Below are positions 46,742-61,523 of a stretch of DNA of 64,000 nt, in pieces. Below the pieces are notes generated by a model. That model saw only the letters and a list, made by a program, of their open reading frames with translations. It searched no databases and was not told where the DNA came from. The translations under genes and the position numbers were made by a program. Position 1 is the first letter of the stretch. The number at the start of each line of letters is the position of its first letter. The DNA is from Sphingomonas sp. So64.6b (GTDB lineage Bacteria > Pseudomonadota > Alphaproteobacteria > Sphingomonadales > Sphingomonadaceae), in assembly GCF_014171475.1 (NCBI RefSeq), contig NZ_CP048817.1, forward strand, positions 868,001 through 932,000, in the 5' to 3' direction.

Positions 46742-47427
46742 TAGTTCTTGGCCTTGATGCGTTCGGCGCGGGCGATCTTCTTGTCGAAGCGGAAGACCAG
46801 TTTTTGCTGCACACTGTCGATGACATAGATCCCGTCGCGCATCGCGCCGTCGACCAGCGTTTCGCGCTTCTTCGAATCAAGCGCGAACACGGCCGGCAAT
46901 GCGCCGTTGGTCGGCCAGGAAATGAAGGTCTTTTCGCCATCGTCATCGATCGCGCTTGGCCAGATGTCCTTCGCGCCGCTCAGCTTGTAGCGCCCGGGCT
47001 GTTTTTCGGCCGTGGTCGCGACGGTCGCGACGGCGGGCGTGGGGTAAGTGAAGCGCACGGTGAACGCCATGTCGGGCAGCGGGCCATAGAGCGGCAGTAG
47101 CTCGAAATTATAACTCCGCGCATCGGTCACCACCGTCATGTTGGTCGACACGCCGTTCTGCAATGCCTTGATGAACAGATGGTCGCCGCGCTTGTTCGGC
47201 GTGACCTGCCACGCACCGCTATCGCCGACTGCGACATTCTCGATCCGCTCGCCGGGGCCGAATTCGACGGTCAATTGATAACCGCTCGCGACTTGCAGCG
47301 AGACGACTTGCGCCGCGTCGTACGCGATTGTCTGGATTCGCGGGTCGCCGGGGCCCGGTACCGGGCGTGTCTGTGCCGTGGCCGCGATCGGGGCAGCGAG
47401 GAGTGACAGGGCGAGCAACAGCCTCAA
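46741..47427 (-). CDS. virB9: T4SS outer-membrane core protein VirB9 (TrbG)
   Basis: Periplasmic/outer-membrane component of the T4SS core. Signal peptide (RLLLALSLLAAPIAATA, cleavage before QTRP), then DPRIQTIAYDAAQVVSL typical of VirB9, NMTVVTDARSYNFEL in the middle, and the C-terminal GIYVIDSVQQKLVFRFD. At 228 residues it is somewhat shorter than many VirB9 proteins. It overlaps virB8 and virB10 at each end. Confidence 0.92.
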   Translation of the reverse strand: MRLLLALSLLAAPIAATAQTRPVPGPGDPRIQTIAYDAAQVVSLQVASGYQLTVEFGPGERIENVAVGDSGAWQVTPNKRGDHLFIKALQNGVSTNMTVVTDARSYNFELLPLYGPLPDMAFTVRFTYPTPAVATVATTAEKQPGRYKLSGAKDIWPSAIDDDGEKTFISWPTNGALPAVFALDSKKRETLVDGAMRDGIYVIDSVQQKLVFRFDKKIARAERIKAKN

Positions 47428-48254
47428 AGCGTGACCTCGATGCCGTCTGATCGCCGACGTGTGGGCTGCCGCTGGGGAACAGTATCGGGATAGCTTCGTA
47501 TGCCACTCGTCGGCGCTGACCCTTGCGGGATCACCACTGCCCCCGGCGGAACGACGACTACCGGATCGGCCGGCGCCAGCGCCTCGGCGTCGCGGCGATA
47601 GCGCAGCACCTGGAAGCCGAGCGGGTTCACGAAACGGTCTTCGCGCTGCATCGGCTCGCCTGAGAAGCGGTAGCGGATGATCGACACCCAGGCCTGGGGC
47701 GGCTTCGCCTGCCCGCCGGCATCGCGTCGTTGCGTTTCGAACCGGACCAATGCGGCATTGCCGCCAAGCGGGGAGATGCTTTTCACGCGAGTCGAGATGA
47801 CCGTCGATTTCGGCAAGCGGGCGAGCGGACTGTCGGGGTTCGAATATTGGACGCTCGATACATATTCCGATCGTGCCGGATCGGCCGACCAGAGCGACGT
47901 CTTGCGGTAATTGGATTGCAGTGCGTCGCTATCGAAGCTTTCACGCGCGATGACATATTGCACCAGAAACGACTGGGTCAACGCCTTGTCCGGCGCGATC
48001 GTCGCGGCGTCGAGTGGCTTCAGCGTCTCGACAAAGCCGGTATTGCGATCGACCAGCAGCGTATAAGGCACGACCGTTTTCAGCGGCATCAATATGATCA
48101 GCGCGATCGCCTCGAACAGGGCGATCACCACCGCCGCCGTCGCGACGATCCACGCCACCTTACGCGACGCGCGCAGCGCTTCCTGCTGGTCGTTGGCCCA
48201 GGTCTCTGCGGCCTGATAATAGCCTTCGCGCGGTATCTTCGTGGTCTTGTTCAT
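47424..48254 (-). CDS. virB8: T4SS inner-membrane protein VirB8
   Basis: Bitopic inner-membrane scaffold. A short cytoplasmic N-terminus, a helix (VAWIVATAAVVIALFEAIALIILMPL, residues 33-58), then the NTF2-like periplasmic domain with VPYTLLVDRNTGFVE and YVIARESFD, a pattern typical of VirB8. The C-terminal ~55 residues are Pro-rich and extend beyond the usual domain. Overlaps virB6 and virB9 genes by four bases each. Confidence 0.92.
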   Translation of the reverse strand: MNKTTKIPREGYYQAAETWANDQQEALRASRKVAWIVATAAVVIALFEAIALIILMPLKTVVPYTLLVDRNTGFVETLKPLDAATIAPDKALTQSFLVQYVIARESFDSDALQSNYRKTSLWSADPARSEYVSSVQYSNPDSPLARLPKSTVISTRVKSISPLGGNAALVRFETQRRDAGGQAKPPQAWVSIIRYRFSGEPMQREDRFVNPLGFQVLRYRRDAEALAPADPVVVVPPGAVVIPQGSAPTSGIRSYPDTVPQRQPTRRRSDGIEVTL

Positions 48255-49522
48255 CTGTTCCCGTCCCGCCGCGCGGCCCCGGCCGACACGCGCCCCCTGG
48301 TGCGGCGGCGATTGCTTTGACCGAGCGGCGTCGCCGCCGCCACCGGAATGTCACGCGATACCGCCTGGCTGCCGATCCGCGCGCCGATTTGCGTCACTGG
48401 CGGCGGCGGCGCGGCGGCGTCGCGCCGCTGGCTCGCGGCGACCGCATCGGCGATCGCGATTGCGCGCGAACGGGGTTCGTCGGCAACGGCCGATCGGCTT
48501 GGCGCGGGCAGCAAGGCCTGGCGCCGATCCTGACCGGACAGCGCATCGGCGAGGCGGGCAGGGGATAGCCGCCATGTATCGGGAATGCGGAAGCCATGCG
48601 CGACTTTCGCCACGGCGATCAGCGTGGCGATCAGCGTCAGCGCGAACACCAGAGTCATGACGAGCAATTCGACCGGTGCGGCCGGCGTCGCTATATCGGC
48701 GTAGCGCTGAGTCAGGACATTCGCCAGCCACGGCTCGATCAGCGCGAGTTCGACACCGAGGATGATCGCCGTCGACAGCGCACCGAGCGTCGCGCCGACC
48801 AGGCCGCGCACCCATCCCTCGAACAGCCCGCGTGTCGCATCGAACAGCAGGAACAAGGCGAACAGCGGCCCCAAAGCGAGCAACAGCCCGGCGACGAGGC
48901 GCACCGAGGCGAAGCCGGCGATCGCGCCGGTCAGGTAGAGCGTGCGCGCCTGGCCGAGCCGGTCATTATCCTTGGCGGGGTCCCAGCGCGGACGTTGCAG
49001 GCCGCGCTGCAGTCTTTGCTGCTCCTGCTGTTGTTGTTGCGGGGTGAGCGTCTGGGTCGGACCGGCGATCACGTCGGCATCGTCCGGCTTGCCCGTGCCG
49101 ATCGCGATCAAGGCCGCGATATTATTGTCGACGCCTTGCAACCGCGAGATCAGCCCGCCGCCGGAGCCCGGCAGACCCGCCGGCTGGCCGATATTGGCGG
49201 CGAGCTGCGCCGGGCCATGCATCGCGACATTATAGGCAAGCGTGCGGAACGCCGGCCAGCTTGTCGCCAGCACCAGCACCAGCCCGATCTTGACCACCGC
49301 CGCGACACCATCGCGCGCATCGGGTGTCTGGCCCAGGATCATGCGATAACCGAACAGCGCGATGAACAAGGTCAGCACGCCGCCGAGCATCAGCGAAACG
49401 CCTGATCCCGGCGTCGCCAGCGCCTGATATCCACCCTGGCCGATCGCTTGCGCCTGGCAATCGACATAGTTGAGCACGCCCGCGAGGAATGCGTCGCCGG
49501 AATAGATCGAAGGACATGCCAT
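48251..49522 (-). CDS. virB6: T4SS polytopic membrane protein VirB6 (TrbL-like)
   Basis: Polytopic inner-membrane channel component. The 423-residue protein begins MACPSIYSGDAFLAGVLNYVD, has six or more hydrophobic helices between residues 40 and 330 and a long Gln/Arg-rich cytosolic or periplasmic loop (QQQQQEQQRLQRGL, about residues 150-170). The C-terminal ~90 residues form a low-complexity, Ala/Pro/Arg-rich tail. The ATG overlaps the virB4 stop (ATGA). Confidence 0.88.
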   Translation of the reverse strand: MACPSIYSGDAFLAGVLNYVDCQAQAIGQGGYQALATPGSGVSLMLGGVLTLFIALFGYRMILGQTPDARDGVAAVVKIGLVLVLATSWPAFRTLAYNVAMHGPAQLAANIGQPAGLPGSGGGLISRLQGVDNNIAALIAIGTGKPDDADVIAGPTQTLTPQQQQQEQQRLQRGLQRPRWDPAKDNDRLGQARTLYLTGAIAGFASVRLVAGLLLALGPLFALFLLFDATRGLFEGWVRGLVGATLGALSTAIILGVELALIEPWLANVLTQRYADIATPAAPVELLVMTLVFALTLIATLIAVAKVAHGFRIPDTWRLSPARLADALSGQDRRQALLPAPSRSAVADEPRSRAIAIADAVAASQRRDAAAPPPPVTQIGARIGSQAVSRDIPVAAATPLGQSNRRRTRGRVSAGAARRDGNR

Positions 49523-51894
49523 CAGGCGCGCTCGAGCAATTTGGGAATCCAGTCGACCGGGTCGTCGCCGCTGGTCTCGCGGATCTCGTCGAGCAACCGC
49601 ACCGTGCGCTCGCGTCCCGACAGGATGGTCAACAGGTCGCGCTCGCCGGTCAGGTTGAGCCTTGCGACGACGCTGTCGGTGCCGTGCTTGACCAGGAAGC
49701 AATGCGCATCGTCGGGCAGCGTCCGCACAAGTTCATATTCGTGCGGGGTCAGCCCGAAGCCGTCGATATAATCCGCCGCCCGCGCCTTGGGATTGGTCAT
49801 GAAGATCTGCGTCGCGGCCTGTTCGATGATCGCGCTGGCGATCTTGCTTTCAAGCGCGTCCTGCGCGCTTTGCGTGGCGAAGCCGACAATGCCGTTGCGT
49901 TTGCGGATCGTCTTTTCCCAATCCTTGATGCGGCGCACGAACACGTCGTCGTCGAGCGCTTTCCACCCTTCGTCGACGACGATGATCGCCGCCGTGCCGT
50001 CGAGCCGTTCCTCGACGCGGTGGAACAGATACATCATTGCCGGCGTCCGCACGATCGGATCGTCGAGGATCGCGGTCATGTCGAAGCCGACCGCTTCCGC
50101 CGACAGATCGGTCAGGTCGCGCTCGTTGTCGAACAGCCAGGCACGTTCGCCGTCGCCCCACCATGGCCGCAGCCGTGCCCACATATCGGCAGCATGAGGG
50201 CGATGCCCGCCGCGGAACAGCTCGGCGAGATGGCGCAGGCGCCGATGCCCGATCGGTTGCGCGAAATTGGCGTCGATCGCGTCCTTGATCTTCGCCACAT
50301 CATCGATGTCCGCGCCGCCGACGAGCATCGCGACCCAGTCGATCAGGAATTGCCGGTTGGCCGGATTGTCGTCGATCTGCAGCGGATTGAGTCCCGACGC
50401 GGTGCCGGGACGCAGCAAGTCGTAACGCCCGCCGATCGCGCGGATGAACAGTTCCGCACCGCGATCCTTGTCGAAGAAGATGATCCGCGGCCGGAATTTC
50501 CGCGCCTGGGCAAGCAGGAAGTTAAGCACCACGGTCTTGCCCGAACCCGACGGGCCGATGACGGTGAAATTGCCCAGGTCGCCCTGGTGGAAGTTGAAAT
50601 GATAGGGGCCGGCCGCGGTCGTCTCGAGCAAGGTCACCGCATCGCCCCAATGATTGCCCTGCGCGCGCCCGAGCGGGAAATTATGGCTGCTGGCGAGGCC
50701 GGCGAAATTGCCCGTAGAGACCAGCCCACGTCGCGCGATATATTTGAAATTACCCGGAAATTGCGCCCAGAAAGCGGGTTCGAGCGCAATCTCCTCGCGC
50801 ACCGCGATGATGCCGAGATCGGCGAGCGATGCCTGCACTTCGGCGACGCCGTCATCGACCTCGCCCGGCGTGCTGCCGCGCACCGCGATGGTCATGTGAT
50901 GTTCGCCATAACCGGCGCGACCGGCGGCGACTTCGTCTTTCGCGGAGGACAATTCGGCGCGCAGGCTGACCGCTTCATCCTCCGCCGATTTCATGCGGCG
51001 CATCGCCAGGTTCATCTTGCCCAGCGCGGCGTTGCGATCGACGAAGCCGAACGACTGCGACACGGTCAGTTCGAATGGCAGGCGCAGCAATTCGTCGAAC
51101 ATGCCCGGCGCGGTCTGACCGGGGTAATCCTTGATCGATACCATGCCGACAAAAGCGCGCGGGGCATTGCCGGCGGGCGCCAGTTCGACCGTGTCCTGGC
51201 CGAAGCTGATCCGCCGATAAGGCAGGTAATCGCCGGCATCCTGCATCGGCAGCAGCACCGGGCGCATCTCGCCATTGTACAGCGAGGAGAGGAATTCGAG
51301 CGGTTCGGAACAGGGCCCTTGCGCGGTGTCGTAGACGCCAAGCAGACGCGGCGCATAGCTGCCGAGCTGCGCCAGCAGCGCGTCGCGTGCGGCATCGAGC
51401 TGGCGCAACTCATGGATCGATTCATCGTTCGCCGTCGTCACAGTGCGGCCGAGCAGGCCACGCACCCGGTCGGCAATGCCGACGCGGCCCTGCAATGGCC
51501 GGCGGATCAGCGTCAGGAACAGCTCATTGACGTATAACTGCTTGGCATCGAGCCGCGCGCGCCATGCCGCATCGAGTTGTTCGGAGAAGGCGTCGGGGAA
51601 TTCGGCAACCATGTCGGTGTCGACGCGGCGACGTACGACATGATGGTAAAGCGCGAAGCGCGACGAGCCGATCGCCTGCAGCATCGCGTCGCGCAGGCCC
51701 TTGCGGTAATTGATCTCGTCCGTGTCGGCAGTCTCGAACAACAGGCCGCGCAGATGGATCACCTGCATGAGCATCCCGTCGCGGGTCGCGATCGTGTGAT
51801 CGTCGACATGCCGCGCATAAGGGAGGTGATGGCCGGCCGGTTTCTCTCGTGCTGCCGCCTTCGGGTCCTGGCTCAGGGGCGGTAAGAGTTGCAT
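49522..51894 (-). CDS. virB4: T4SS ATPase VirB4
   Basis: Large cytoplasmic ATPase that energises T4SS assembly and transfer. The 790-residue protein has the N-terminal VirB4 domain, Walker A GPSGSGKTVVLN near residue 435, and Walker B IIVVDEGWKAL near residue 645, with FATQSAQD and YELVRTLPDDAHCFLVKHG in the C-terminal part. ATG at 51894 is chosen because the longer frame would overlap virB3 by more than 80 bases; the chosen start overlaps it by 22. Confidence 0.95.
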   Translation of the reverse strand: MQLLPPLSQDPKAAAREKPAGHHLPYARHVDDHTIATRDGMLMQVIHLRGLLFETADTDEINYRKGLRDAMLQAIGSSRFALYHHVVRRRVDTDMVAEFPDAFSEQLDAAWRARLDAKQLYVNELFLTLIRRPLQGRVGIADRVRGLLGRTVTTANDESIHELRQLDAARDALLAQLGSYAPRLLGVYDTAQGPCSEPLEFLSSLYNGEMRPVLLPMQDAGDYLPYRRISFGQDTVELAPAGNAPRAFVGMVSIKDYPGQTAPGMFDELLRLPFELTVSQSFGFVDRNAALGKMNLAMRRMKSAEDEAVSLRAELSSAKDEVAAGRAGYGEHHMTIAVRGSTPGEVDDGVAEVQASLADLGIIAVREEIALEPAFWAQFPGNFKYIARRGLVSTGNFAGLASSHNFPLGRAQGNHWGDAVTLLETTAAGPYHFNFHQGDLGNFTVIGPSGSGKTVVLNFLLAQARKFRPRIIFFDKDRGAELFIRAIGGRYDLLRPGTASGLNPLQIDDNPANRQFLIDWVAMLVGGADIDDVAKIKDAIDANFAQPIGHRRLRHLAELFRGGHRPHAADMWARLRPWWGDGERAWLFDNERDLTDLSAEAVGFDMTAILDDPIVRTPAMMYLFHRVEERLDGTAAIIVVDEGWKALDDDVFVRRIKDWEKTIRKRNGIVGFATQSAQDALESKIASAIIEQAATQIFMTNPKARAADYIDGFGLTPHEYELVRTLPDDAHCFLVKHGTDSVVARLNLTGERDLLTILSGRERTVRLLDEIRETSGDDPVDWIPKLLERA

Positions 51895-52157
51895 CGCCAG
51901 ATCGCATGGTTGCGGACGCGCGGGCAGCGCGACACGCGGGTCAGCCACAGGTCGAAGATGCGTGGTTCGCGCAGGCACAACAGCACACCTGCGACATGCA
52001 CGACGAGCGCCACCGCCAGTACCCAGATCGAATGGAAGATCAGGAACAATTCGGTCGCGACGACCGCATTGACCACAAAATAACTATAGGTGACGCCGGC
52101 GAACATCTGCGGCCGGGTGAGGGCGACGAACACCGTATCGCGCTCCAGCCCGGTCAT
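51873..52157 (-). CDS. virB3: T4SS protein VirB3
   Basis: Small inner-membrane protein of 94 residues, beginning MTGLERDTVFVALTRPQMFAG, the typical VirB3 start (xxVFVALTRPxMxxG), with two adjacent hydrophobic helices (YSYFVVNAVVATELFLIF and VLAVALVVHVAGVLLCL), ending EPRIFDLWLTRVSRC. Often fused to VirB4; here separate, with a 22-base overlap. Confidence 0.93.
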   Translation of the reverse strand: MTGLERDTVFVALTRPQMFAGVTYSYFVVNAVVATELFLIFHSIWVLAVALVVHVAGVLLCLREPRIFDLWLTRVSRCPRVRNHAIWRCNSYRP

Positions 52158-52159
52158 GC

Positions 52160-52486
52160 TCAGTTACCCAGGCCGGCGGTCGACTGAATGCCCGCGACGA
52201 TGCTCGCCGCGCCGAACAGGATGAAACAACCCAGGATCACCGTCGCGCCGTAACGCCAGTTGATCCGCCCGGTCAGCATCATGAACCCAACCACCGCGAC
52301 CGCGATCACCGCACAGACGGTGGCGACGGTACCGAGCAACGTGCCCTGCATCCATTGCACGGCGGACACGAGTACGCCGGAGCCGGCCGGATCGGCGAGC
52401 GAATCCTGCGCCATGGCGGCGCTCGATTGAACTGCGGCAGCGATGCTCGCCAGCCAGATTGACGCTGTTGAACGTTGAAACTTCAC
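52160..52486 (-). CDS. virB2: T4SS major pilin VirB2 (TrbC-like)
   Basis: A 108-residue prepilin. The long signal sequence (KFQRSTASIWLASIAAAVQSSAAMAQ) precedes two hydrophobic helices (VATVCAVIAVAVVGFMML and GATVILGCFILFGAASIVAGI) separated by a basic loop (TGRINWRY), the usual VirB2 hairpin. GTG at 52486 is favoured because a purine-rich GGGGTAATC precedes it; a longer frame to 52558 lacks any support. It is the first gene of the virB operon, and the intergenic sequence 52487-52615 presumably holds the operon promoter. Confidence 0.88.
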   Translation of the reverse strand: MKFQRSTASIWLASIAAAVQSSAAMAQDSLADPAGSGVLVSAVQWMQGTLLGTVATVCAVIAVAVVGFMMLTGRINWRYGATVILGCFILFGAASIVAGIQSTAGLGN

Positions 52487-52615
52487 GCGATTACCCCACC
52501 CGGTCTTTTCGTCACCAGAATCGATCCGGACATTGCGCGTTCGCCTGCCGCTTGCCAATCCCTGTTTAAATTTTGGCCCCGTTGACGATCTGGGTAGCGG
52601 TGCGATCGGTGCGGT

Positions 52616-53215
52616 TCAAGCGGCTGCGCGCAGCATGTCCGCCAGCCAGTCATTGACCTCGCAATCGATGACGAGATGGACGCGATCCTCGGTGCCGCGA
52701 TTGGCGACACGATGCGGGTCGGCGAGGCGCAAATACCACGCGCTGCCCGGCGCCATTGCGACCGGAATGCCGTTGAGCATGAATTCGACATCCGGATTGG
52801 TCGTGATCGGGATATGGATCCGCGCCTTGCCCCAATCGGCGGCAAGGTCATGATCATTATGTTCCTTGATCACCGAGCCAGGCGTCAGCCGCATCAGCCG
52901 CGCCGCGTGCATTGGGCATTTAAAGCTCGCCAGCACCGCGGTCAGATAGGCCGACGCGGCGAGATTCGGCCCATCGACGAATTCGGTCGCGGTCGGATCG
53001 GCATAGATCATCTTGATCGGATGCGTCGCGCCCTTGGCGAAACGCAGCGGCAGCACGCTCCAGTCGCCCTCGTAATTCTGCGGCACATAATGCCTGGTCC
53101 ATGCATCTCGTTCGAGGCGTTCGAGATCGGCACGCAACTGAGCCGGATCAAACGAGAAGGGCAGGCACAGCCGATCAGCGTAACTATGGGCGGATTGTTG
53201 CAGCACATCGAGCAT
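52616..53215 (-). CDS. Aspartyl/asparaginyl beta-hydroxylase family Fe(II)/2OG oxygenase
   Basis: A 199-residue member of the aspartyl/asparaginyl beta-hydroxylase family. The iron-binding HxD is in KEHNDHDL near residue 120, the distal His and 2OG Arg follow in DPHRVANRG, and LVIDCEVNDW closes the fold. It is divergent from the sulfotransferase gene with 91 bases between starts. The neighbourhood suggests a peptide side-chain substrate, but the actual substrate is unknown. Confidence 0.86.
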   Translation of the reverse strand: MLDVLQQSAHSYADRLCLPFSFDPAQLRADLERLERDAWTRHYVPQNYEGDWSVLPLRFAKGATHPIKMIYADPTATEFVDGPNLAASAYLTAVLASFKCPMHAARLMRLTPGSVIKEHNDHDLAADWGKARIHIPITTNPDVEFMLNGIPVAMAPGSAWYLRLADPHRVANRGTEDRVHLVIDCEVNDWLADMLRAAA

Positions 53216-53306
53216 GATAGGCGGACACCCTTGACCGGGATCGACCCCCGATATCCGATCAGCCTATCGGCCGCGAGGGCGGTTGGAAAGACGGCGTGCG
53301 CGATTC

Positions 53307-54524
53307 ATGACCACCGATACCGACACCTGCAATGTTCCGGCATTACTCGATCGTTTTCGCCAGTATCTGATGACCGACGGCCCGCTTCAGCAGCGTCTGG
53401 CCCCGCTGTACGATGACAATGTCTTCGCAGCGGCGGCAGCCGAGACTGCCGCCGCAGCCGGCATTCCGCTGTCGAGCGAGGATTTGAAGGCCTGTTTCCA
53501 GCCCGATCCGCTGGGCCTGTCGCGCTTCGACGATCGGCCGGCAAACGATATCGCCTGGCCGGGCAAGCATTGGCTTCCCTCGGCCATGGTCGCGGCCGGG
53601 CCGGAGTTCGTCGTCGATTGGATGCACTTCGCGGGACGGCGCCTTGCCGATCCGTTTTTCAATGAATCGCTGATGCACGCACGCGCCTTGCCGTTCAATC
53701 GGCTGATGCTGTACCGCACGCCGCTCGGCGCCTTTGCGCAAGGCGCCGCAGGCGAGGAACTGACCGTTCCGAACGGGTTTATCTTCCATCTTTCGCGCTG
53801 CGGCTCGACCCTGGCGGCGCAGATGCTCACCGCAATGGATGATACCATCGTCATATCCGAACCGCCGCCACTCGATGCGGTCGTCCAACTCACCCATATA
53901 CGCAAGGACGTGCCGCTCGAAACACGGGTCGATCTGTTGCGCACCATGGTCGGTGCGCTGGGCCGCGACTGGACCGGCACGGCGCGCAATTATGTGGTGA
54001 AGCTCGACAGCTGGCATACGCTTGAACTGCCGCTGTTCCGTCAGGCATTTCCCGATACGCCCTGGATCTTCCTTTATCGCGATCCAGTCGAGATAATGGT
54101 GTCGCACCGGCGCATGCGCGGCCTGCAGGCTGTGCCGGGCGGCACAACGGTCGATTTCGGCATTGTCGATGGCGACCATATGCCGTTCGAAGAATTCACC
54201 GCCCGTGTTTTGCGCAGTGTCAGCAATGCAGTGATCGAGCATCACGGTCTGGGCGGCGGCCTGGTGATCAATTATGATTCGCTGCCGGGCGCGATCGAGA
54301 CGCAGGTCCTGCCCCATTTCGGGATCGCGCACGATGCCAAGGGACTCGCCGCGCTGCATGCCGCGAGCGAACGCGATGCGAAGGCCCCAAGACAGGGTTT
54401 CACCCGCGATACAGAACGCAAGCAGCAGGATGCGACGCCGGAGATCCGCGCCGCGGCGGCCGAGTTTCTCGCCGAACCTTATCGTCAGCTCGAAGCGCTG
54501 CGTCTGGCGCAGGGCGCGGCGTGA
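53307..54524 (+). CDS. Sulfotransferase-like protein with Nif11-like N-terminal segment
   Basis: A 405-residue protein. Residues 1-70 (LLDRFRQYLMTDGPLQQRL and AETAAAAGIPLSSEDLKAC) resemble Nif11-like leader segments found in peptide-maturation loci. Residues 150-400 form a sulfotransferase-like domain: 5'-PSB loop FIFHLSRCGSTLAAQML and 3'-PB pattern WIFLYRDPVEIMVSHRR. The PAPS-binding residues are plausible, so sulfation is possible; a divergent, non-sulfating role cannot be excluded. ATG at 53307 is chosen over 53283. It precedes the asparagine-synthetase-like gene by 13 bases, so they are an operon. Confidence 0.82.
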   Translation: MTTDTDTCNVPALLDRFRQYLMTDGPLQQRLAPLYDDNVFAAAAAETAAAAGIPLSSEDLKACFQPDPLGLSRFDDRPANDIAWPGKHWLPSAMVAAGPEFVVDWMHFAGRRLADPFFNESLMHARALPFNRLMLYRTPLGAFAQGAAGEELTVPNGFIFHLSRCGSTLAAQMLTAMDDTIVISEPPPLDAVVQLTHIRKDVPLETRVDLLRTMVGALGRDWTGTARNYVVKLDSWHTLELPLFRQAFPDTPWIFLYRDPVEIMVSHRRMRGLQAVPGGTTVDFGIVDGDHMPFEEFTARVLRSVSNAVIEHHGLGGGLVINYDSLPGAIETQVLPHFGIAHDAKGLAALHAASERDAKAPRQGFTRDTERKQQDATPEIRAAAAEFLAEPYRQLEALRLAQGAA

Positions 54525-54537
54525 TCGCGACGCCACG

Positions 54538-56448
54538 ATGAGCGCGATCTTCGGCGTTATCCGGACCGATGGCGGAACGGTGTCGGAACGCGAGCTTGGT
54601 CGCATGGCCAACACGCTCGCGCATCGCGGACCCGATGGCCGGCATATCGAGGTGAATGACGGTGTCGGTCTGGGACACTGCCTGTTGCGGGTCAATCGCG
54701 AGGACTGGTATGAGGCGCAGCCGATTCGCGACGGCGCGATCACGCTGGTCGCCGATCTCCGGCTCGACAATCGCGAGGCGCTGGCTGCAGCGCTCGGCAT
54801 CGGCGAGGCGGTGCTCCGCGATATGCCCGACAGTGTGTTGCTGCTCGCCGCGTATCGCGAATGGGGCGCGGATTGCACCGATCGCCTGCTCGGCGATTTC
54901 GTCTTTGCGATCTGGGACGGCGCGTCGCGCAAGCTCACGCTCGCGCGTGACCATATGGGCCAGCGCGGCGTGTTCTTTCACCATGGCGCAGGGCTGTTCG
55001 TATTCGCCAGCGAGCCCAAGGCGTTATGGGCGGTCGAAGGCGTGCCGCGCCGACTATCCGAAGAAGCGATCGGCCAGCGCCTGCTTTTTCCGGTCGACCA
55101 CACACTTGGTGCAACGCTGTACGAGGGGATCGAGATTCTGCCGGGCGGGCACGTGCTGACGCTGGCGGCTGACGGCGCTCGAGCCACCCGCGCCTATTGG
55201 CAACCTCGCGCGACGCCTGAGCATCTCGGCCGGGACGAGGCCTACTATGTCGACGCCTATCGCCGGATACTTGGCGAGGCGGTGGTCTGCCGAGTGCGCC
55301 GGCTCGGGCGTCCGCCCGCTTTGTTGTTCAGCGGGGGGTTTGACAGTGGCGCGATCGCTGCGCTCACCGCGCCGGTCATGACCGAGCAGGGGCGTCGCGT
55401 CGTCGCGCTATGCTCGGCGCTGGCCGAGGACGCGCCACCGCCGGTGCACGACGCACGCGCCGCGGCGGAGGCGTTCCGCGACTATCCGCACATCGATCTG
55501 CGGTATTTCGTGCGCACGGACGAAACGCCGTTCAGCGATATCGAAACGAGTTTCGCCGCGACCGATGACAGTGCGGGCACCGCTTATGTCCGGCGCGGAT
55601 TATATCGCATGGCCTCGGCGGCGGACACCCGGCTGGTGCTGGATGGGATGGGCGGCGATCTCACGCTCAATGTGCGGAGCGGCGCGATGCTCGGCCGCGT
55701 ATTGCTGGGCGGGCGCGTACCGAGCTTCCTGCGCGAGTTGCGCGCACGCCGCCACGCGACCGGGCGGTCGATGCTGCATATCCTGCGCGAGGATGTTATG
55801 CCGGCCCTTACGCCGTTGTGGCTGTCGGCGGCGATTCGCTCTTGGCGGCGGCGTGGCGTGCCGATGTGGCGGATGCGGCCGATCGCTGCGCGCTTCGCAC
55901 AGCAATTGTTCGACCAGGAGGCAATCGACCCCGACCGCCTGACCGTGCCTGGCCCTGCCTATTATCGCTGGGAAGCGCGGCGGCTTGATTTCCTGTGCAA
56001 GGCGGCATGGGGGCAGCCGAACGAAACGATCCTGGCGGCGAGCGAGGGTCTTGAGCTTTCCCGCCCGTATTTTGACCGTCGCGTTGTCGAATTCGCGCTG
56101 GCGATTCCGGATACATTGCATTTGCGGTTCGGCAATGAACGCCATCTGGCGCGCATCGCGCTGGCCGAACATTTGCCTGTGCGGTTACTGCTCAGCGGTC
56201 CCGGCAATGTATCGGAAAGTCCCGATATGTACCGCGCGACGCGCGACAGCGCGCCCGAAGCATTGGTCGCCGTGCGGGCGCTGGATCATGATGGCCGCTT
56301 GTCGCGTTATATCGATTTCAAGGCGCTGGCGCATTCGATCGAGACGATCGATCCATCGGAACGCAAGGGCCTCCGCGCGCTGCACCGCGCGTCGCGCACG
56401 ATCGCGCTGGCGCGCTTCATCGCCTGGTTCGACGACCGCAATCGCTGA
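54538..56448 (+). CDS. Asparagine-synthetase-like amidotransferase, glutaminase Cys absent (lasso-cyclase-like)
   Basis: A 636-residue AsnB homologue. It starts MSAIFGVIRTDGG where true AsnB has MCGI, so the glutaminase nucleophile Cys2 is replaced by Ser; the rest of the N-terminal Ntn domain (LAHRGPDGRH, LRLDNREAL) is present. The synthetase domain keeps the PP-loop SGGFDSG near residue 264 and DGMGGDLTL. Loss of Cys2 with an intact synthetase domain is seen in lasso-peptide cyclases (LasC/McjC) and related beta-lactam-type enzymes, which activate a carboxylate and form an amide without glutamine. Other explanations include a plain decayed AsnB paralogue. Confidence 0.85.
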   Translation: MSAIFGVIRTDGGTVSERELGRMANTLAHRGPDGRHIEVNDGVGLGHCLLRVNREDWYEAQPIRDGAITLVADLRLDNREALAAALGIGEAVLRDMPDSVLLLAAYREWGADCTDRLLGDFVFAIWDGASRKLTLARDHMGQRGVFFHHGAGLFVFASEPKALWAVEGVPRRLSEEAIGQRLLFPVDHTLGATLYEGIEILPGGHVLTLAADGARATRAYWQPRATPEHLGRDEAYYVDAYRRILGEAVVCRVRRLGRPPALLFSGGFDSGAIAALTAPVMTEQGRRVVALCSALAEDAPPPVHDARAAAEAFRDYPHIDLRYFVRTDETPFSDIETSFAATDDSAGTAYVRRGLYRMASAADTRLVLDGMGGDLTLNVRSGAMLGRVLLGGRVPSFLRELRARRHATGRSMLHILREDVMPALTPLWLSAAIRSWRRRGVPMWRMRPIAARFAQQLFDQEAIDPDRLTVPGPAYYRWEARRLDFLCKAAWGQPNETILAASEGLELSRPYFDRRVVEFALAIPDTLHLRFGNERHLARIALAEHLPVRLLLSGPGNVSESPDMYRATRDSAPEALVAVRALDHDGRLSRYIDFKALAHSIETIDPSERKGLRALHRASRTIALARFIAWFDDRNR

Positions 56449-56470
56449 CGCGTGCGGTCGCCCGTATCAA

Positions 56471-56677
56471 TCAGGAGCCGAAGGGGCCGTAGACCGGCGT
56501 GTTCGTGTCCGTTCCGAAGCCAACGGTATAGGCTTCGGTCTGTTGTTTGGTGCTCGCCGCGAAAACCATCGGCGTGGTCCAGGGTTTGCGCTGGCCAACG
56601 GCGAAATCGTCCGACTGCGTGACGTCGCAAATTGGCAAGTCCGCGGACATCCCAGCCGTTAAGTTATATGCCTTCAT
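56471..56677 (-). CDS. Candidate RiPP (lasso-type) precursor peptide
   Basis: A 68-residue ORF convergent with the asparagine-synthetase-like gene, 22 bases from its end. The leader-like segment has KPWTTPMV, similar to the YxxPxL leader motif of lasso precursors, and QQTE, with Thr at -2 of a possible core. The putative core would start AYTVGFGTD, placing Asp at position 9, the spacing of a nine-residue lasso ring, with a tail rich in Thr, Asn, Pro and Gly ending VYGPFGS. GGGGGAG lies about 11 bases before the ATG. No B1/B2 protein genes are in view, so assignment is a hypothesis. Confidence 0.45.
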   Translation of the reverse strand: MKAYNLTAGMSADLPICDVTQSDDFAVGQRKPWTTPMVFAASTKQQTEAYTVGFGTDTNTPVYGPFGS

Positions 56678-56996
56678 GATTTCAGCCGCTCCCCCAGGCC
56701 CCTGCGCCCTACTTTAGGGCTTTGAGGATGGCAGAACCGTTTTGCTTTCGCAACATGTTGGTAGCGTCGAGATGCGCCGGAATTGCGATGGCCATTTGGC
56801 TGCGTGCATAGCGCAGTGCTTTTCCAGGTATTTTATTGACTTGTTACAGTCGGATAAGACCGATGCAGGGTATGTGCCATATCGGTTGCGAAATATTTTC
56901 CTGTTGTGTGCGGTCGCGAATCGATCCATCCATGTCGCTCACTAACCGGGGGCGGGTAGCTGACGGCAACGCCCGCGACAGAATTGGGGGGATTCC
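56678..56996. other. Leader region before the first tail-collar block
   Basis: About 319 bases, lower in GC than the neighbourhood, with no convincing gene. The last 125 bases share blocks with the region before the second collar block (58663-58918): GCGAAATAT, TGTTG, CGATCCATCC and GGGGGCG-GT-GCTG in the same order. Likely 5' leader and promoter of the first collar operon. Confidence 0.55.
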
Positions 56997-57521
56997 GTGG
57001 CGCAACCATTTCTTGGCCAGATTGTCATGACCGGCTTTAATTTTGCGCCGCGCTTTCACGCCACATGCGACGGGCAGCTTCTGTCGATCGCGCAGAATAC
57101 GGCGTTGTTCTCCCTGCTCGGGACGACTTATGGCGGTAACGGAACCACGACTTTCCAACTGCCCGATCTTCGCGGTCGTACGCCGGTCCATCGCGGTCAG
57201 GGGCCAGGGCTGCCAAATGTTACGCTGGGCGAGTCTGACGGCCAGGAAAAAGTGACTCTGCTAACCACCGAGATTCCCGCGCACCAACATGACATGATCG
57301 GCACGTCGAATCCCGGCGACAGGCGGCCTGCGAGCGGTAACACGCAAGCGCCGGATTCGCGCGCCGATGTGCAATTCTATTCGCCCGCGACCAATCTGGT
57401 GCAACTCTCGCCATCCGCGCTCGGTACGGTCGGGACCAATGCCGGGCACGAGAATATGCAACCGTTCGGCGTCATCAATTTCGCCATCGCGCTGTCGGGC
57501 ATCTTCCCCTCGCGCAACTGA
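56997..57521 (+). CDS. Tail-collar domain protein, type A copy 1 (MdpB-like)
   Basis: A 174-residue phage tail-collar (microcystin-dependent protein-like) protein. It shows the shared family blocks FNFAPRF, CDGQLLSIAQNTALFSLLGTTYGGNG, LPDLRGRTPVHRGQGPG, and the end GIFPSRN. Type A is marked by DSRADVQFYSPATNLV. No signal peptide is visible. It starts with GTG at 56997 after a G-rich stretch. The family is widespread in bacteria outside phages; a surface or adhesion role is suspected, not shown. Confidence 0.88.
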   Translation: MAQPFLGQIVMTGFNFAPRFHATCDGQLLSIAQNTALFSLLGTTYGGNGTTTFQLPDLRGRTPVHRGQGPGLPNVTLGESDGQEKVTLLTTEIPAHQHDMIGTSNPGDRRPASGNTQAPDSRADVQFYSPATNLVQLSPSALGTVGTNAGHENMQPFGVINFAIALSGIFPSRN

Positions 57522-57557
57522 TGCGGTCCCATTCGCCCGAGCGGCGTGGAGAATGAC

Positions 57558-58103
57558 ATGAGTGACCCTTTTCTTGGTGAGATCCGGATTTTCGCGGGGA
57601 ATTTCGCGCCGCGTGGCTGGCAATTTTGTGATGGAACGCTGCTGTCGATCGCGCAGGACAGCGCGCTCTATGCGTTGCTCGGCACGACCTATGGCGGCGA
57701 TGGCGTGACCACCTTCGGTGTACCCGATCTGCGCGGCCGGGTGCCGGTGCATCAGGGGACGGGCCCCGGCCTGACCACGCGCCCTATCGGGCAAAAGGCG
57801 GGGCAGGAAACCGTCACGCTGACGACGGCGGAACTTCCCGCTCATACCCATGCGGCGTATGCATCGACGACGCCGGCGACGCTCGATGGACCGGCCAATG
57901 CTGTCGCGGGCACCGTCAACCCGACCGCGTCCCAATATTCCTTCTACGTCAACACGGTCGGCACCAGCACCGCGACGCTGGCGCCGCTCGCCGCCACCAG
58001 CGTCACGTCGGCGGGCAACAGTGAGCCGCACGACAATCTGATGCCGACGACGACGCTGTCGTACATAATCTCTCGTGAGGGCATCTTCCCTTCGCGCAAC
58101 TAA
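57558..58103 (+). CDS. Tail-collar domain protein, type B copy 1
   Basis: A 181-residue collar protein starting MSDPFLGEIRIFAGNFAPRGW. Besides the family core (CDGTLLSIAQ, LLGTTYGGDG, PDLRGRVPVHQGTGPG), type B is defined by ASTTPATLDGPANAVAGTVN and TASQYSFYV. The start at 57558 follows GGAG by six bases; it is 36 bases behind the type A gene. Its closest relative in the window is the type B gene at 59462, not its neighbour. Confidence 0.88.
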   Translation: MSDPFLGEIRIFAGNFAPRGWQFCDGTLLSIAQDSALYALLGTTYGGDGVTTFGVPDLRGRVPVHQGTGPGLTTRPIGQKAGQETVTLTTAELPAHTHAAYASTTPATLDGPANAVAGTVNPTASQYSFYVNTVGTSTATLAPLAATSVTSAGNSEPHDNLMPTTTLSYIISREGIFPSRN

Positions 58104-58119: not shown

Positions 58120-58662
58120 ATGTCCTCGCCATTCCTCGCCGAAGTGCGCATCTTTCCCTATAATTTCGCGCCGCGCGGCTGGGCCGCTTGCGACGGGCAG
58201 ATTTTAGGGATTGCGCAGAACACCGCGTTGTTCTCGCTGCTCGGTATCACTTATGGCGGTAACGGCCAGACAACTTTCGCGCTGCCCGACCTGCGTGGGC
58301 GCGCCACCAACAGCAGGGGGCAGGGGCCGGGCCTTTCGCCCTACGATCTCGGCGAACAGTTCGGTACGCCTACGGTCACCCTCGGGCTCAACCAGATGCC
58401 GGCGCATCGGCATCCGCTGAATGCCGCTACGCTGTCGCCGCTCAATCAAGCGCAGAATGTGCCGACGCCCAGCGGGACCACCGTGATGGGCATTTCCAAC
58501 CCCGGCACCGCCTATTCCAGCGTGCCGACACCGGCCGTTGCAATGGCGACGGAAGCAATTCAGGGCGTCGTCGGCGGCAACCAGCCGCACAAAAATGATC
58601 AGCCCTATCTCGCATTCACCTTTTGCATTGCGATGGAGGGCATCTTTCCGACGCGTAACTAA
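58120..58662 (+). CDS. Tail-collar domain protein, type C copy 1
   Basis: A 180-residue collar protein starting MSSPFLAEVRIFPYNFAPRGW. Type C is marked by AATLSPLNQAQNVPTPSG and GISNPGTAYSSVPTPAV, ending GIFPTRN. ATG at 58120 is used (GGAG upstream), 16 bases after the type B gene. It is the last gene of the first block. Confidence 0.88.
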   Translation: MSSPFLAEVRIFPYNFAPRGWAACDGQILGIAQNTALFSLLGITYGGNGQTTFALPDLRGRATNSRGQGPGLSPYDLGEQFGTPTVTLGLNQMPAHRHPLNAATLSPLNQAQNVPTPSGTTVMGISNPGTAYSSVPTPAVAMATEAIQGVVGGNQPHKNDQPYLAFTFCIAMEGIFPTRN

Positions 58663-58918
58663 GTTTCGTCGGATAACGTCCCGCTATTTCTGTTCGACGG
58701 GTATTGGACACTCCCAGCCAAGTTGTGGCCCTTTCTCTTCGATCGCATGTGATCTGACAGGTGTTGCGTTGCTGCTCGCGCATGGAACAACAAGGCATTC
58801 GTACCGGATGCGAAATATCTGTTGAGTCCTGACGCAAAACGATCCATCCCAGCAACTCAACACTTGGGGGCGAGTGGCTGGTAGCTTCTTTTCCCCGAAA
58901 GAAGCTTGAGGGGCTGGC
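58663..58918. other. Leader region before the second tail-collar block
   Basis: About 256 bases with no gene accepted. The sequence near 58805-58890 shares with the region before 56997 the blocks GCGAAATAT, TGTTG, CGATCCATCC and GGGGGCG-GT-GCTG, in the same order. This suggests a duplicated leader/promoter for the second block. Confidence 0.55.
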
Positions 58919-59428
58919 ATGGGCAATCCGTACCTGGGTGAAATTAAGCTTTGCTCGTTCAATTTTGCGCCGAAGGCCTACGCGCAATGCAATGGGCAAT
59001 TGCTCCCGATAAATCAGAATCAGGCGCTCTTCTCGCTGCTCGGGACGATGTATGGCGGCGACGGCCGGGTGAACTTCGCGCTTCCCGACCTGCGCGGCCG
59101 CACCCCGATCTCCTTTGGTAATGGACATACGCAGGGCGAGCGCGGCGGGCAGGAAAGCCACACGCTGACCATCCCTGAAATGCCGCAGCATCTTCATCAG
59201 CTGAACGGTACGTCCGCCGTGGGCGATAAGCGGCCGGCCAACGGCGCCACGCTGGCTGCGGATTCGCGCAACGATGTGCAATTCTATTCGCCGCCGGCCA
59301 ATTTGATTCCGCTGGCGCCGGCGTCGGTCGGCAACCGAGGCGGGAGCCAGCCGCATAATAATCTGCAGCCTTATCTCGCCATCATGTTCGTCATCGCGCT
59401 GCAGGGCATCTTCCCCTCGCGCACCTGA
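58919..59428 (+). CDS. Tail-collar domain protein, type A copy 2
   Basis: A 169-residue collar protein starting MGNPYLGEIKLCSFNFAPKAY. It matches the first type A gene (56997) in DSRNDVQFYSPPANLIPL and overall plan; core CNGQLLPINQNQALFSLLGTMYGGDG and LPDLRGRTPI, ending GIFPSRT. It opens the second block after a leader region like that of the first. Confidence 0.88.
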   Translation: MGNPYLGEIKLCSFNFAPKAYAQCNGQLLPINQNQALFSLLGTMYGGDGRVNFALPDLRGRTPISFGNGHTQGERGGQESHTLTIPEMPQHLHQLNGTSAVGDKRPANGATLAADSRNDVQFYSPPANLIPLAPASVGNRGGSQPHNNLQPYLAIMFVIALQGIFPSRT

Positions 59429-59461: not shown

Positions 59462-60004
59462 ATGTCGCAACCCTATGTCGGTGAAATTCGCATGTTCGGG
59501 GGCAATTTTGCGCCCGCTGGATGGGCATTCTGTGACGGCCGTCTATTGCCAATCTCGGAAAACGACGTGTTGTTCGTCCTGATCGGTACGACCTATGGCG
59601 GTGATGGCCAGGAGACCTTTGCTCTGCCCGATTTGCGGGGTCGGTTGCCGATACATGCGGGGACCGGACCGGGCTTGTCGGCCTATGCTCAGGGCCAGGC
59701 TGCGGGCACCGAAAGCGTCACGCTGACGCTCAACCAGATGCCGCAGCACAGCCACACGCTGATGGCATCGACCACCCCGGCGACATTGCCTTCGCCCGCC
59801 AATGCCGTACCGGGCACGGTCAATCCGACCGCGTCGTCATACTCGATGTATGTCGTACCGGGAACCAGCACCATGGTTCCGGCGCCGATGGCTGCAACGA
59901 GCATTTCACCGCAGGGCGGCAGCCAGCCACATGAGAATCGGATGCCGGCGCTGGCCGTATCCTTTATCATCTCGCTGTTCGGTATCTTCCCTTCACAGAA
60001 TTGA
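59462..60004 (+). CDS. Tail-collar domain protein, type B copy 2
   Basis: A 180-residue collar protein starting MSQPYVGEIRMFGGNFAPAGW. It pairs with the type B gene at 57558: ASTTPATLPSPANAVPGTVN and TASSYSMYV. Core CDGRLLPISEN and LIGTTYGGDG, ending GIFPSQN. 33 bases behind the type A gene. Confidence 0.88.
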   Translation: MSQPYVGEIRMFGGNFAPAGWAFCDGRLLPISENDVLFVLIGTTYGGDGQETFALPDLRGRLPIHAGTGPGLSAYAQGQAAGTESVTLTLNQMPQHSHTLMASTTPATLPSPANAVPGTVNPTASSYSMYVVPGTSTMVPAPMAATSISPQGGSQPHENRMPALAVSFIISLFGIFPSQN

Positions 60005-60020: not shown

Positions 60021-60560
60021 ATGTCTTCTCCTTTTGTTGCCGAGATCCGCATCTTCGGCTTTAATTTCCCGCCCACAGGATGGGCGTATTGTGCAGGCCA
60101 GCTCCTGCCGATCTCCCAGAACACGGCGCTTTTCTCGTTGCTCGGCACGACTTATGGCGGCAATGGCACGACGACATTCGCGCTGCCCGACTTCCAGGAC
60201 AGGGCCGCCATGTCGAGCGGGCAGGGGGCTGGTCTTAGCGAGTATGTTCTCGGCGAAGAAAGCGGGATTGATAACGTCACCTTGTTGACCAGCGAGATTC
60301 CCGCGCACGACCACGCGCTGGTCGCCGCGACACTCAGTCCAATCAACCCGTCCCAGAATGTGCCGACCCCGATCAGCGGCGCGCAGCTGGGCATCTCCAA
60401 TCCCGGCAACGCTTATTCGACCGTCGCGACGCCAGTGGCGGCATCGGCTCCACAAGCGCTCCAGCCGCAGGGTGGATCTCAGCCGCACAATAATATGCAG
60501 CCTTATCTCACGCTGAATTTCTGCATTGCGATGCAGGGCGTCTTTCCGGCGCGTAACTAG
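60021..60560 (+). CDS. Tail-collar domain protein, type C copy 2
   Basis: A 179-residue collar protein starting MSSPFVAEIRIFGFNFPPTGW. It pairs with the type C gene at 58120: AATLSPINPSQNVPTPISG and GISNPGNAYSTVATPVA. The LPDLRGR motif is changed to LPDFQDR. It ends GVFPARN. ATG at 60021 is used; it is 16 bases after the type B gene, the same spacing as in the first block. Confidence 0.88.
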   Translation: MSSPFVAEIRIFGFNFPPTGWAYCAGQLLPISQNTALFSLLGTTYGGNGTTTFALPDFQDRAAMSSGQGAGLSEYVLGEESGIDNVTLLTSEIPAHDHALVAATLSPINPSQNVPTPISGAQLGISNPGNAYSTVATPVAASAPQALQPQGGSQPHNNMQPYLTLNFCIAMQGVFPARN

Positions 60561-60568
60561 GCGCGCCG

Positions 60569-61102
60569 ATGATCGCGAGTGCCGGTTTTCCGTTCGACCT
60601 GCCGGCGACACTCGTCGCGCAGGGCTTTTCGCTGCGCCCCGAAGCCGACGCGGATGTGCCGTTCGCGATGCGGCTCTATGCCTCGACGCGCGAGGATGAA
60701 CTGGCACAGGTCTCTGGCTGGAGCGAGGAGCAGAAATCCCTGTTCCTGGCGCAACAATTCACCGCCCAGCGCCACCATTACAAGACGCAATTGGCATGCG
60801 ATTTCCATGTCATCGAGCATCATGGAGAGCCGGTCGGGCGACTCTATCTCGAGCGCCGCGAGACCATCGTATCAATCGTCGACATCGCGCTGATGCCCGA
60901 GGCGCGGGGCAAGGGGACGGGGCGCTTCATCATCGAGGCATTGATCGAGGCGGCGGCGCAAACCGGGCGCGGCGTCGGCATTTTCGTTGAAAAATTCAAT
61001 CCCGCGCTTCACCTCTATCAGCGGCTCGGCTTCACCATGGTCCGTGAGCTTGAGGTCTATCTCGAAATGGAAAGAGTCAGCACTCCGGCTTCGGCTAGCT
61101 GA
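60569..61102 (+). CDS. GNAT-family N-acetyltransferase next to the collar genes
   Basis: A 177-residue acetyltransferase. Motif A is visible as PEARGKGTGRFIIEALIEAA, with IVDIALMPE before it and NPALHLYQRLGFTMV at the C-terminus, all typical of GNAT enzymes. It lies eight bases after the last collar gene and probably belongs to the same operon. The position suggests it acetylates a surface component or the collar proteins, but no substrate is known. Confidence 0.85.
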   Translation: MIASAGFPFDLPATLVAQGFSLRPEADADVPFAMRLYASTREDELAQVSGWSEEQKSLFLAQQFTAQRHHYKTQLACDFHVIEHHGEPVGRLYLERRETIVSIVDIALMPEARGKGTGRFIIEALIEAAAQTGRGVGIFVEKFNPALHLYQRLGFTMVRELEVYLEMERVSTPASAS

Positions 61103-61397
61103 AGCACGCTTCGTACGTCACGCCGCTCTCGTCCTTGGCTACCGGCACCAGGAAAATGTGCTGGTCGCCCATTGCCGCGTGCTGCAGCAAATAGCTGAAC
61201 TGCGGCCGGACGATACCGTCGGCCGCCTTGAACTGCAGCGAGAAGGGCTCGCGCGGCGCATCGGCTCGCTTGAGCGAGCTCTGGGCTACTGCGTCGGTCA
61301 ATACCAGTTCGGTCGTCGCGCCCTCGGGATCGACCAGCGTGAAGCTCGTGCCCAGATGAGCGGTGAAATCCTCACATGCCAGAATGCCGTCGACCAT
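61095..61397 (-). CDS. DUF6916-like protein
   Basis: A 100-residue protein starting MVDGILACEDFTAHLG. The pattern of small beta strands and the ending GVTYEACFS resemble DUF6916 proteins, which accompany tail-collar genes in other genomes. The ATG at 61397 is chosen. It converges with, and overlaps by eight bases, the end of the GNAT gene. Function unknown. Confidence 0.65.
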   Translation of the reverse strand: MVDGILACEDFTAHLGTSFTLVDPEGATTELVLTDAVAQSSLKRADAPREPFSLQFKAADGIVRPQFSYLLQHAAMGDQHIFLVPVAKDESGVTYEACFS

Positions 61398-61523
61398 GTC
61401 CTTCTTGCTCCCCCTTGTTCGTCGAATTGATGCGTGGCCGATCAAATGCCGACAATCAAGCGACAGCATACTCCTGGGCTAACTTGGGTTTAAATTTCCA
61501 GGCTGGTTTGTCGCCGCTCAAGA

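What the first reader, a model, noticed from the sequence alone, without database searches (positions are those of the whole stretch)
52616..56677. Possible RiPP (lasso-like) locus with Asp hydroxylase, sulfotransferase and glutaminase-dead asparagine synthetase
Seen: an Asp/Asn beta-hydroxylase, a sulfotransferase-like protein with Nif11-like N-terminus and an AsnB homologue lacking Cys2 lie together, with a small ORF on the opposite strand. Known: lasso cyclases are AsnB-like with a non-functional glutaminase, and Fe/2OG hydroxylation of Asp occurs in other lasso pathways. Inferred: a peptide could be cyclised, hydroxylated and sulfated. No B1 or B2 (leader protease) gene is in this window, so if it is lasso-like, those genes would have to be elsewhere or replaced.
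Basis: partly seen in the sequence, partly recalled or inferred. Interest (0 to 1): 0.8.

Follow-up and report, generated by a model that had tools for sequence, protein, structure and literature searches.

The report
Split lasso-peptide locus with tail-collar genes
This bacterium, probably a Sphingomonas, appears to make a knotted (lasso) peptide with genes scattered over its chromosome, and the peptide gene sits beside genes for phage-tail-like collar proteins, a pairing that recurs in relatives and hints at an unexplored role for such peptides.

Summary
The AsnB-like protein is a lasso cyclase by profile (322 bits, against 166 for AsnB; two true AsnBs of the genome score the other way) and by tree. 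The small ORF is a conserved precursor: W..P.V leader motif, Thr(-2), Asp9, C-terminal Ser; 28 of 31 collected precursors fit lasso architecture, shuffles mean 7. The missing B1 and B2, with a kinase and another sulfotransferase, form an operon 1.28 Mb away that is under purifying selection and holds no cyclase; four precursor-cyclase pairs of this genome lack a B2 of their own, so B2 probably works in trans. Beyond the finding: the cyclase lies beside T4 gp12-like collar genes at 9 of 13 assessable loci, a link that needs at least four changes on the cyclase tree. The hydroxylase and the tyrosylprotein-sulfotransferase-like protein occur almost only in genomes with collar genes (19 of 21 and 17 of 18) and were found at none of the sphingomonad cyclase loci examined that lack them. 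Whether they modify the peptide is open; a Tyr test gave no support. A new variant of kinase-type lasso systems; the collar's role is unknown.

The parts
52616..53215 (-). Aspartyl/asparaginyl beta-hydroxylase family protein (HYD), 199 aa
   Evidence: PF05118 9.6e-14; in 21 of 150 relatives; weak PDB match to L-proline cis-4-hydroxylase 4p7w, E 1.6e-4
53307..54524 (+). Sulfotransferase-like protein (SULF), 405 aa, with Nif11-like N-terminal region
54538..56448 (+). Lasso cyclase (LasC), AsnB-like, 636 aa, Ser instead of Cys2, PP-loop SGGFDS kept
   Evidence: NF033535 322 bits vs TIGR01536 166; controls reversed; tree; alignment
56471..56677 (-). Lasso precursor (A), 68 aa, convergent with LasC
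   Evidence: conserved homologues; architecture test; dN/dS 0.23 against ERG5
56534..56677 (-). Predicted leader (48 aa) with RKPWTTPMV motif and Thr(-2)
   Evidence: cleavage site inferred
56474..56533 (-). Predicted core AYTVGFGTDTNTPVYGPFGS: ring Ala1-Asp9, C-terminal Ser20
   Evidence: inferred
56997..57521 (+). Collar-domain protein 1
   Evidence: PF07484 2.9e-26; genome match
57546..58103 (+). Collar-domain protein 2
   Evidence: T4 gp12 short tail fibre 1ocy E 9.3e-6
58120..58662 (+). Collar-domain protein 3
   Evidence: ATG chosen inside the listed GTG ORF
58919..59428 (+). Collar-domain protein 4 (start of second triplet)
59462..60004 (+). Collar-domain protein 5
60021..60560 (+). Collar-domain protein 6
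   Evidence: start chosen by likeness to the other collar proteins
60569..61102 (+). GNAT acetyltransferase
   Evidence: PF13508 6.5e-12; present in 13 of 13 LasC loci with a collar triplet, window included
61095..61469 (-). DUF6916 protein
   Evidence: PF21880 7.6e-24; in 9 of the same 13 loci

Best explanation
The locus makes a kinase-type lasso peptide by a split pathway. The 68-aa precursor and its cyclase are encoded here. The leader-binding protein B1 (PqqD-like), the leader peptidase B2, an HPr-kinase-like protein and a PF00685 sulfotransferase are supplied in trans by an operon at C1:2199696-2202271, about 1.28 Mb away. Steps: B1 binds the W..P.V leader motif; the kinase phosphorylates the C-terminal Ser; B2 cuts two residues after Thr(-2); LasC adenylates Asp9 and joins it to the new N-terminus (Ala1), giving a 9-residue ring. 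Shown here: gene content, conservation, family assignment, purifying selection, co-occurrence of LasC and B2. Inferred: every chemical step, the cleavage site, trans action. The collar, GNAT and DUF6916 genes are taken as functional partners of the peptide (recurrent linkage), mechanism unknown. HYD and SULF are taken as a tailoring pair of the collar-containing versions; their substrate is not settled.
For: LasC vs AsnB profile scores with controls; tree with three AsnB-type controls apart (100*). Precursor: 28 of 31 have T/S(-2) with first acidic residue at core 7-9, shuffles mean 7.1, highest 16 in 2000. B1 PF05402 2.7e-19 and B2 NF033537 82.9 bits (cut-off 33) in the distant operon. One B2 of this family in the genome, and PqqD only there and at L018, while four precursor-cyclase pairs (window, L016, L017, L018) have no PF13471 gene nearby. 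B2 in 12 of 12 LasC genomes and 26 of 150 overall. Synteny MFS-GH1-TonB-[LasC]-B2-B1-ST-kinase: LasC present in G046, absent in own genome and ERG5. dN/dS own vs ERG5: B1 0.02, B2 0.10, ST 0.13, kinase 0.12. In G042, G084 and G010 (and G065, with a distant B2) the collar-LasC block and kinase-ST-B2 lie together. Paenibacillus loci found with this cyclase have C-A-kinase-B1-B2-NTP-ABC. Kinase action on C-terminal Ser: PMC9266682, PMC8498205 (passages).
Against: The cyclase is below NCBI's cut-off (322 of 525 bits), though a Paenibacillus cyclase in a full cluster scores only 363. The kinase matches known models weakly (TIGR04352 47.9 of 200). Two other PF13471 genes exist in the genome, so which B2 serves this precursor is inferred; a weak tblastn B2 hit (28%) 8 kb from the L016 pair is not borne out by PF13471. 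Core position 1 is variable, often not Gly. Three of 31 precursors do not fit and several allow two registers; the 31 include near-copies and were picked by eye. No product is known.
Confidence: 0.77

Rival explanations
1. HYD and SULF do not modify the lasso peptide but the collar proteins or an envelope or polysaccharide substrate; their place beside LasC reflects the shared collar module.
For: At cyclase loci without collar genes (L016, L018, L080, L081, L085, L033, and the short L032 and L034) neither was found. All 17 genus genomes with SULF are among the 33 with collar genes (p 7e-10, not corrected for kinship), and 19 of 20 with HYD. Beside collar genes without LasC: L136 and L157 (both), L116 and L158 (SULF). 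Lone pair beside a ManC-like nucleotidyltransferase gene in L170-L173 (profile checked for L170). Tyr in the core does not track SULF.
Against: The pair sits at 9 LasC loci and one of the two at 3 more. SULF and HYD also co-occur with LasC (p 3e-6, 1e-5) and SULF with B2 (14 of 18). HYD loci all have Asp, not Glu, as ring acceptor (10 of 10, others 10 of 14). PqqD-like genes stand near HYD in L136 and L176. Outside the sphingomonads one collar-less cyclase locus, L065 of Paenibacillus, has a weak SULF match (29%; 1 of 37 loci), and sulfotransferase genes in Firmicutes lasso clusters are in print (PMC8498205). G030 and G123 have HYD, and G123 SULF, without collar genes. L136 is on a cut contig of a genome whose LasC lies on another short contig.
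Confidence: 0.5
2. The collar, GNAT and DUF6916 genes merely lie in the same genomic hot spot and have nothing to do with the peptide.
For: 44 of 54 further collar clusters have no LasC, HYD or SULF nearby. Collar genes occur in 42 of 150 relatives.
Against: 9 of 13 assessable LasC loci have collar genes against about 0.2% expected per 20 kb (based on 64 listed clusters, the list was cut). All 9 collar matches of the window's genome lie beside LasC-type genes. At least 4 changes of the collar label on the LasC tree, one of them resting on the long-branched L156. The GNAT tree keeps many lasso-linked members together, e.g. window-L067-L073, L074-L077, L078-L079 as in the LasC tree, but needs 5 label changes.
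Confidence: 0.25
3. The AsnB-like enzyme makes another peptide modification (unthreaded macrolactam or side-chain amide), not a lasso.
For: Below the curated lasso cyclase cut-off; unusual residue 1; threading cannot be read from sequence.
Against: Leader motif, Thr(-2), acidic residue at 7-9, B1 and B2 partners, kinship to cyclases of kinase-B1-B2 loci.
Confidence: 0.13
4. Ordinary AsnB paralogue beside an unrelated ORF.
For: PF13537 and PF00733 domains.
Against: No Cys2; profile scores and tree; conserved precursor.
Confidence: 0.02

Closest known systems
Phosphorylated lasso peptides: paeninodin (PadeK), ThcoK, SyanK of Sphingobium yanoikuyae (PMC9266682, PMC8498205, passages seen)
   Same: AsnB-like cyclase, PqqD-like B1, B2 peptidase, HPr-kinase-like protein, precursor with W/Y..P.L/V motif, Thr(-2), acidic residue at 7-9 and C-terminal Ser; a sulfotransferase gene is reported in some Firmicutes clusters (PMC8498205)
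   Different: Here A and C are unlinked from B1, B2 and kinase; collar, GNAT, DUF6916, HYD and SULF genes are present; residue 1 is often not Gly
Canucin A and CanE, Fe/2OG lasso hydroxylase (PMC8498205, PMC9266682, passages seen)
   Same: A hydroxylase gene in a lasso locus
   Different: CanE acts on a C-terminal Asp; here the cores end in Ser and usually have a single acidic residue, the ring acceptor. Homology of HYD to CanE was not tested
T4 gp12 short tail fibre collar domain; microcystin-dependent-protein type proteins (second name recalled)
   Same: PF07484 domain; sequence matches to tail fibres 8kec, 1ocy, 1pdi; HxH in 141 of 143 collected
   Different: Encoded as chromosomal triplets with GNAT and often DUF6916, beside lasso genes; phage neighbours were not searched for
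Tyrosylprotein sulfotransferases TPST1 and TPST2; bacterial RaxST (PMC6637879, search listing only)
   Different: 14-16% identity in the top seven rows, an extra N-terminal Nif11-like region, substrate unknown; RaxST was not compared
Sphingocin spgABC of Sphingomonas BPH (PMC11006600, passages seen)
   Same: Sphingomonad lasso operon with AsnB-like cyclase and B2
   Different: Three-gene operon, benenodin family, Gly1, core ends in Asp

Membership tests
Lasso peptide biosynthetic system | AsnB-like cyclase C with non-functional glutaminase | tested here: met
   NF033535 is the best profile, 322 vs 166 bits, controls reversed; Cys2 replaced by Ser. Curated cut-off 525 not reached; a Paenibacillus cyclase in a full cluster has 363
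Lasso peptide biosynthetic system | Precursor with leader motif, Thr(-2), Asp/Glu at core 7-9 | tested here: met
   window fits; 28 of 31 collected
Lasso peptide biosynthetic system | B1 (RRE) and B2 (leader peptidase) in the same locus | tested here: not met
   no PF13471 or PF05402 match in the window
Lasso peptide biosynthetic system | B1 and B2 somewhere in the genome | tested here: met
   L013: PF05402 2.7e-19, NF033537 82.9 bits
Lasso peptide biosynthetic system | Threaded lariat product | not testable with these tools
   needs MS/NMR
Phosphorylated (kinase-type) lasso peptides | C-terminal Ser in precursor | tested here: met
   window and its four homologues P0002-P0005; 31 of 31 collected, but a Ser filter or picking by eye helped to choose many of these
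Phosphorylated (kinase-type) lasso peptides | HPr-kinase-like gene | tested here: inconclusive
   Hpr_kinase_C 26.7 bits (cut-off 33.3), TIGR04352 47.9 (200); stands with B1 and B2, and its homologues stand with cyclase, B1 and B2 in the Paenibacillus loci
Asparagine synthetase B (ordinary) | Cys2 and grouping with AsnB | tested here: not met
   Ser2; AsnB-type controls on a separate branch, 100*
Tyrosylprotein sulfotransferase | Sulfotransferase fold | tested here: met
Tyrosylprotein sulfotransferase | Sulfation of Tyr in a peptide or protein | not testable with these tools
   indirect Tyr test not significant, p 0.41
Graspetides | ATP-grasp ligase | not tested
   no dedicated search

The most novel reading that the evidence does not exclude
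Lasso peptide and collar triplet form one unit: the kinase-type lasso peptide is made to work with gp12-like trimeric collar proteins, for instance as a ligand, plug or warhead carried by a secreted or surface fibre, with HYD, SULF and GNAT tailoring the pair. This would be a new use of lasso peptides and a new class of non-phage collar system, assembled several times independently, with B1, B2 and kinase shared in trans by several precursor-cyclase pairs of one genome.
Probability: 0.27. Interest if true: 0.85.

Novelty: new variant of a known kind. Interest (0 to 1): 0.6.

Why it matters
Genome mining that expects A, B and C genes together would miss a split system in which one B1-B2-kinase operon serves remote precursor-cyclase pairs. 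The recurrent link to gp12-like collar triplets gives a testable lead to the function of both. The hydroxylase and sulfotransferase pair offers two candidate tailoring reactions whose substrate could be settled by one expression experiment.

Tried and rejected
Ordinary AsnB paralogue: rejected. Chance small ORF: rejected. Exclusive link of collar genes to lasso genes: rejected, 44 of 54 further clusters have no LasC, HYD or SULF (4 of the 44 have a kinase-like gene with an AsnB-type one). These 54 were taken from the matches that one search listed; more were not listed. The tree (quick method) has long branches (L052, L068, L156). Rows dropped before it: L066, L070, L072, L084; from the 48 proteins. 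The fold search tested mainly residues 150-403 of SULF; the N-terminal region was not searched alone. Literature: 10 searches. None of the held papers has lasso peptide with tail collar, with microcystin dependent protein, or with sulfotransferase, kinase and Sphingomonas together; none of the 12 listed has collar domain; 14 hold lasso peptide, phage tail and gene cluster (12 listed, by title bacteriocin reviews and genome papers, not read). The library lacks most subscription papers, e.g. the paeninodin paper, so absence from print is not shown.

Full report
What is there. The four ORFs of the finding exist as described, with a likelier start for the sulfotransferase at 53307. The locus is larger: six collar-domain genes (two triplets), a GNAT gene and a DUF6916 gene follow directly. 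The window is C1:868001-932000 of a 5.06-Mb single-contig genome. It is probably a Sphingomonas: near named relatives are Sphingomonas sp. ERG5 and Sphingomonas sp. UYAg733; this is inference.

The cyclase. Against NCBIfam the AsnB-like protein scores 322 bits for lasso cyclase and 166 for AsnB. Paralogues in the same genome behave alike: L016 325 vs 196, L017 233 vs 139, L018 206 vs 149; two MCG-type AsnB controls give 194 vs 368 and 240 vs 485. None of these lasso-type ones reaches the curated 525, nor does a Paenibacillus cyclase in a full C-A-kinase-B1-B2-NTP-ABC locus (363); an Acidobacteria one does (686). In a tree of 44 proteins the three AsnB-type controls stand apart (100*) and the window sits in a starred clade of ten proteins from its genus and ERG5. 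The PP-loop SGGFDS is kept, Cys2 is Ser. The nearest solved structures by sequence are a hydroxyamidotransferase (7ylz) and AsnB (1ct9).

The precursor. Four homologues are all 68 aa. Counterparts lie at ERG5 and at all 9 collar-linked LasC loci, and at most of the other loci looked at; none was found for L080, and L034 and L083 are short contigs. I collected 31 by the W..P motif, small size and place near LasC (L075 lies 3 kb away), partly by eye and partly with a Ser-ending filter; acidic residues were no filter. 28 of 31 have a T or S from which the core starts two residues on, with its first acidic residue at 7-9; shuffled cores give a mean of 7.1 and at most 16 in 2000. The misses are L033b, L032b and L085. 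Several of the 28 allow two registers, and near-copies are among them. All end in Ser, the site phosphorylated by known lasso kinases (PMC9266682, PMC8498205; passages). The published motif spans positions -17 to -12 with T at -2 (PMC10368454, passages); in the window W is at -16.

The missing enzymes. PF13471 occurs three times and PqqD (PF05402) twice in the genome, all outside the window. One place, L013, is an operon of kinase, PF00685 sulfotransferase, PqqD-like B1 and B2. The other PqqD match is at L018, which has precursor, cyclase, sulfotransferase and kinase-like gene but no PF13471 match. So four precursor-cyclase pairs (window, L016, L017, L018) have no B2 of their own, and the genome has one B2 of this family; the other two PF13471 genes stand beside a different cyclase type. 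ERG5 has the syntenic operon between TonB receptor and ABC-F genes, also without a cyclase; G046 has it with a cyclase between TonB and B2. Contig length ties G046 to Sphingomonas alpina (inference). Own vs ERG5 dN/dS is 0.02-0.13 for the four genes, so they are kept without a cyclase in cis. B2 lies away from the collar-linked LasC in G000 and G046, on other contigs of drafts in ERG5, G052, G089 and G039, and away from LasC in G082. In G042, G084, G010 and G065 it lies in the same stretch. The second pair, L016, has no hydroxylase, sulfotransferase or kinase match beside it.

The collar link. Of 15 LasC matches in relatives, own genome included, 13 are on stretches long enough to judge; 9 have collar genes in the fetched stretch, against about 0.2% expected per 20 kb from 64 listed collar clusters in 150 genomes (lower bound, the list was cut). 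In the window's genome 9 of 9 collar matches lie in two clusters, both beside LasC-type genes of 28-29% mutual identity. On the LasC tree the collar label needs 5 changes, at least 4 by starred branches, one of them resting on the long-branched L156. From the other side, of 54 further collar clusters fetched from the listed matches, 6 have LasC (L120, L133, L134, L135, L141, L156), 4 have HYD or SULF without LasC (L116, L136, L157, L158) and 44 have neither. So collar triplets are a wider family that lasso loci recruit. GNAT is present at 13 of 13 LasC loci with a collar triplet, DUF6916 at 9 of 13. A GNAT tree keeps many lasso-linked members together but needs 5 label changes.

Verdict. A real lasso-type locus, a new variant: split biosynthesis plus a recurrent collar module. 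The lasso assignment is strong, trans action likely, collar partnership likely but without mechanism, HYD and SULF substrate open.

Noticed in passing
window about 56905-56965 and 58823-58885; also L067 and L073: A conserved DNA stretch (around CGATCCATCC, then a G-rich part) lies upstream of both collar triplets of the window and of the triplets in L067 and L073; the six collar genes look like a duplicated triplet.
   Followed up: partly
window 44658-52558 (-): Type IV secretion genes (T2SSE, TrbI, VirB8, CagE_TrbE_VirB, TrbC pilin) end directly before the hydroxylase, so the locus borders a conjugation-type region.
   Followed up: partly
L017 1113-9214 (C1:302000-316000): Second lasso-collar locus in the same genome: NTP_transf_5, GNAT, three collar genes, precursor, cyclase, ABC transporter; G046 has the same (L120).
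   Followed up: partly
L014, L015, L018: Further lasso-type loci in this genome: two with a longer B2 protein and a different cyclase type, and L018 with sulfotransferase, kinase-like gene and PqqD gene but no B2.
   Followed up: partly
L176 9616-10543: A PqqD gene (PF05402 8.6e-18; 48% to the lasso B1) stands beside a hydroxylase of this family among genes that read like polysaccharide genes, with no LasC found in the stretch.
   Followed up: partly
L138, L147, L152, L161: Near collar and GNAT genes, a match to the lasso HPr-like kinase (45-48%) beside a protein closest to the true AsnB controls.
   Followed up: no
G074 (L126-L132): One relative has 29 collar matches, seven clusters of which were fetched, and no LasC at 1e-60.
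   Followed up: no
precursor core position 1: Residue 1 varies (A, H, N, Q or R, S, G, K or T, L, Y, F in the predicted registers), where Gly is said to be typical (PMC11006600 passage).
   Followed up: partly
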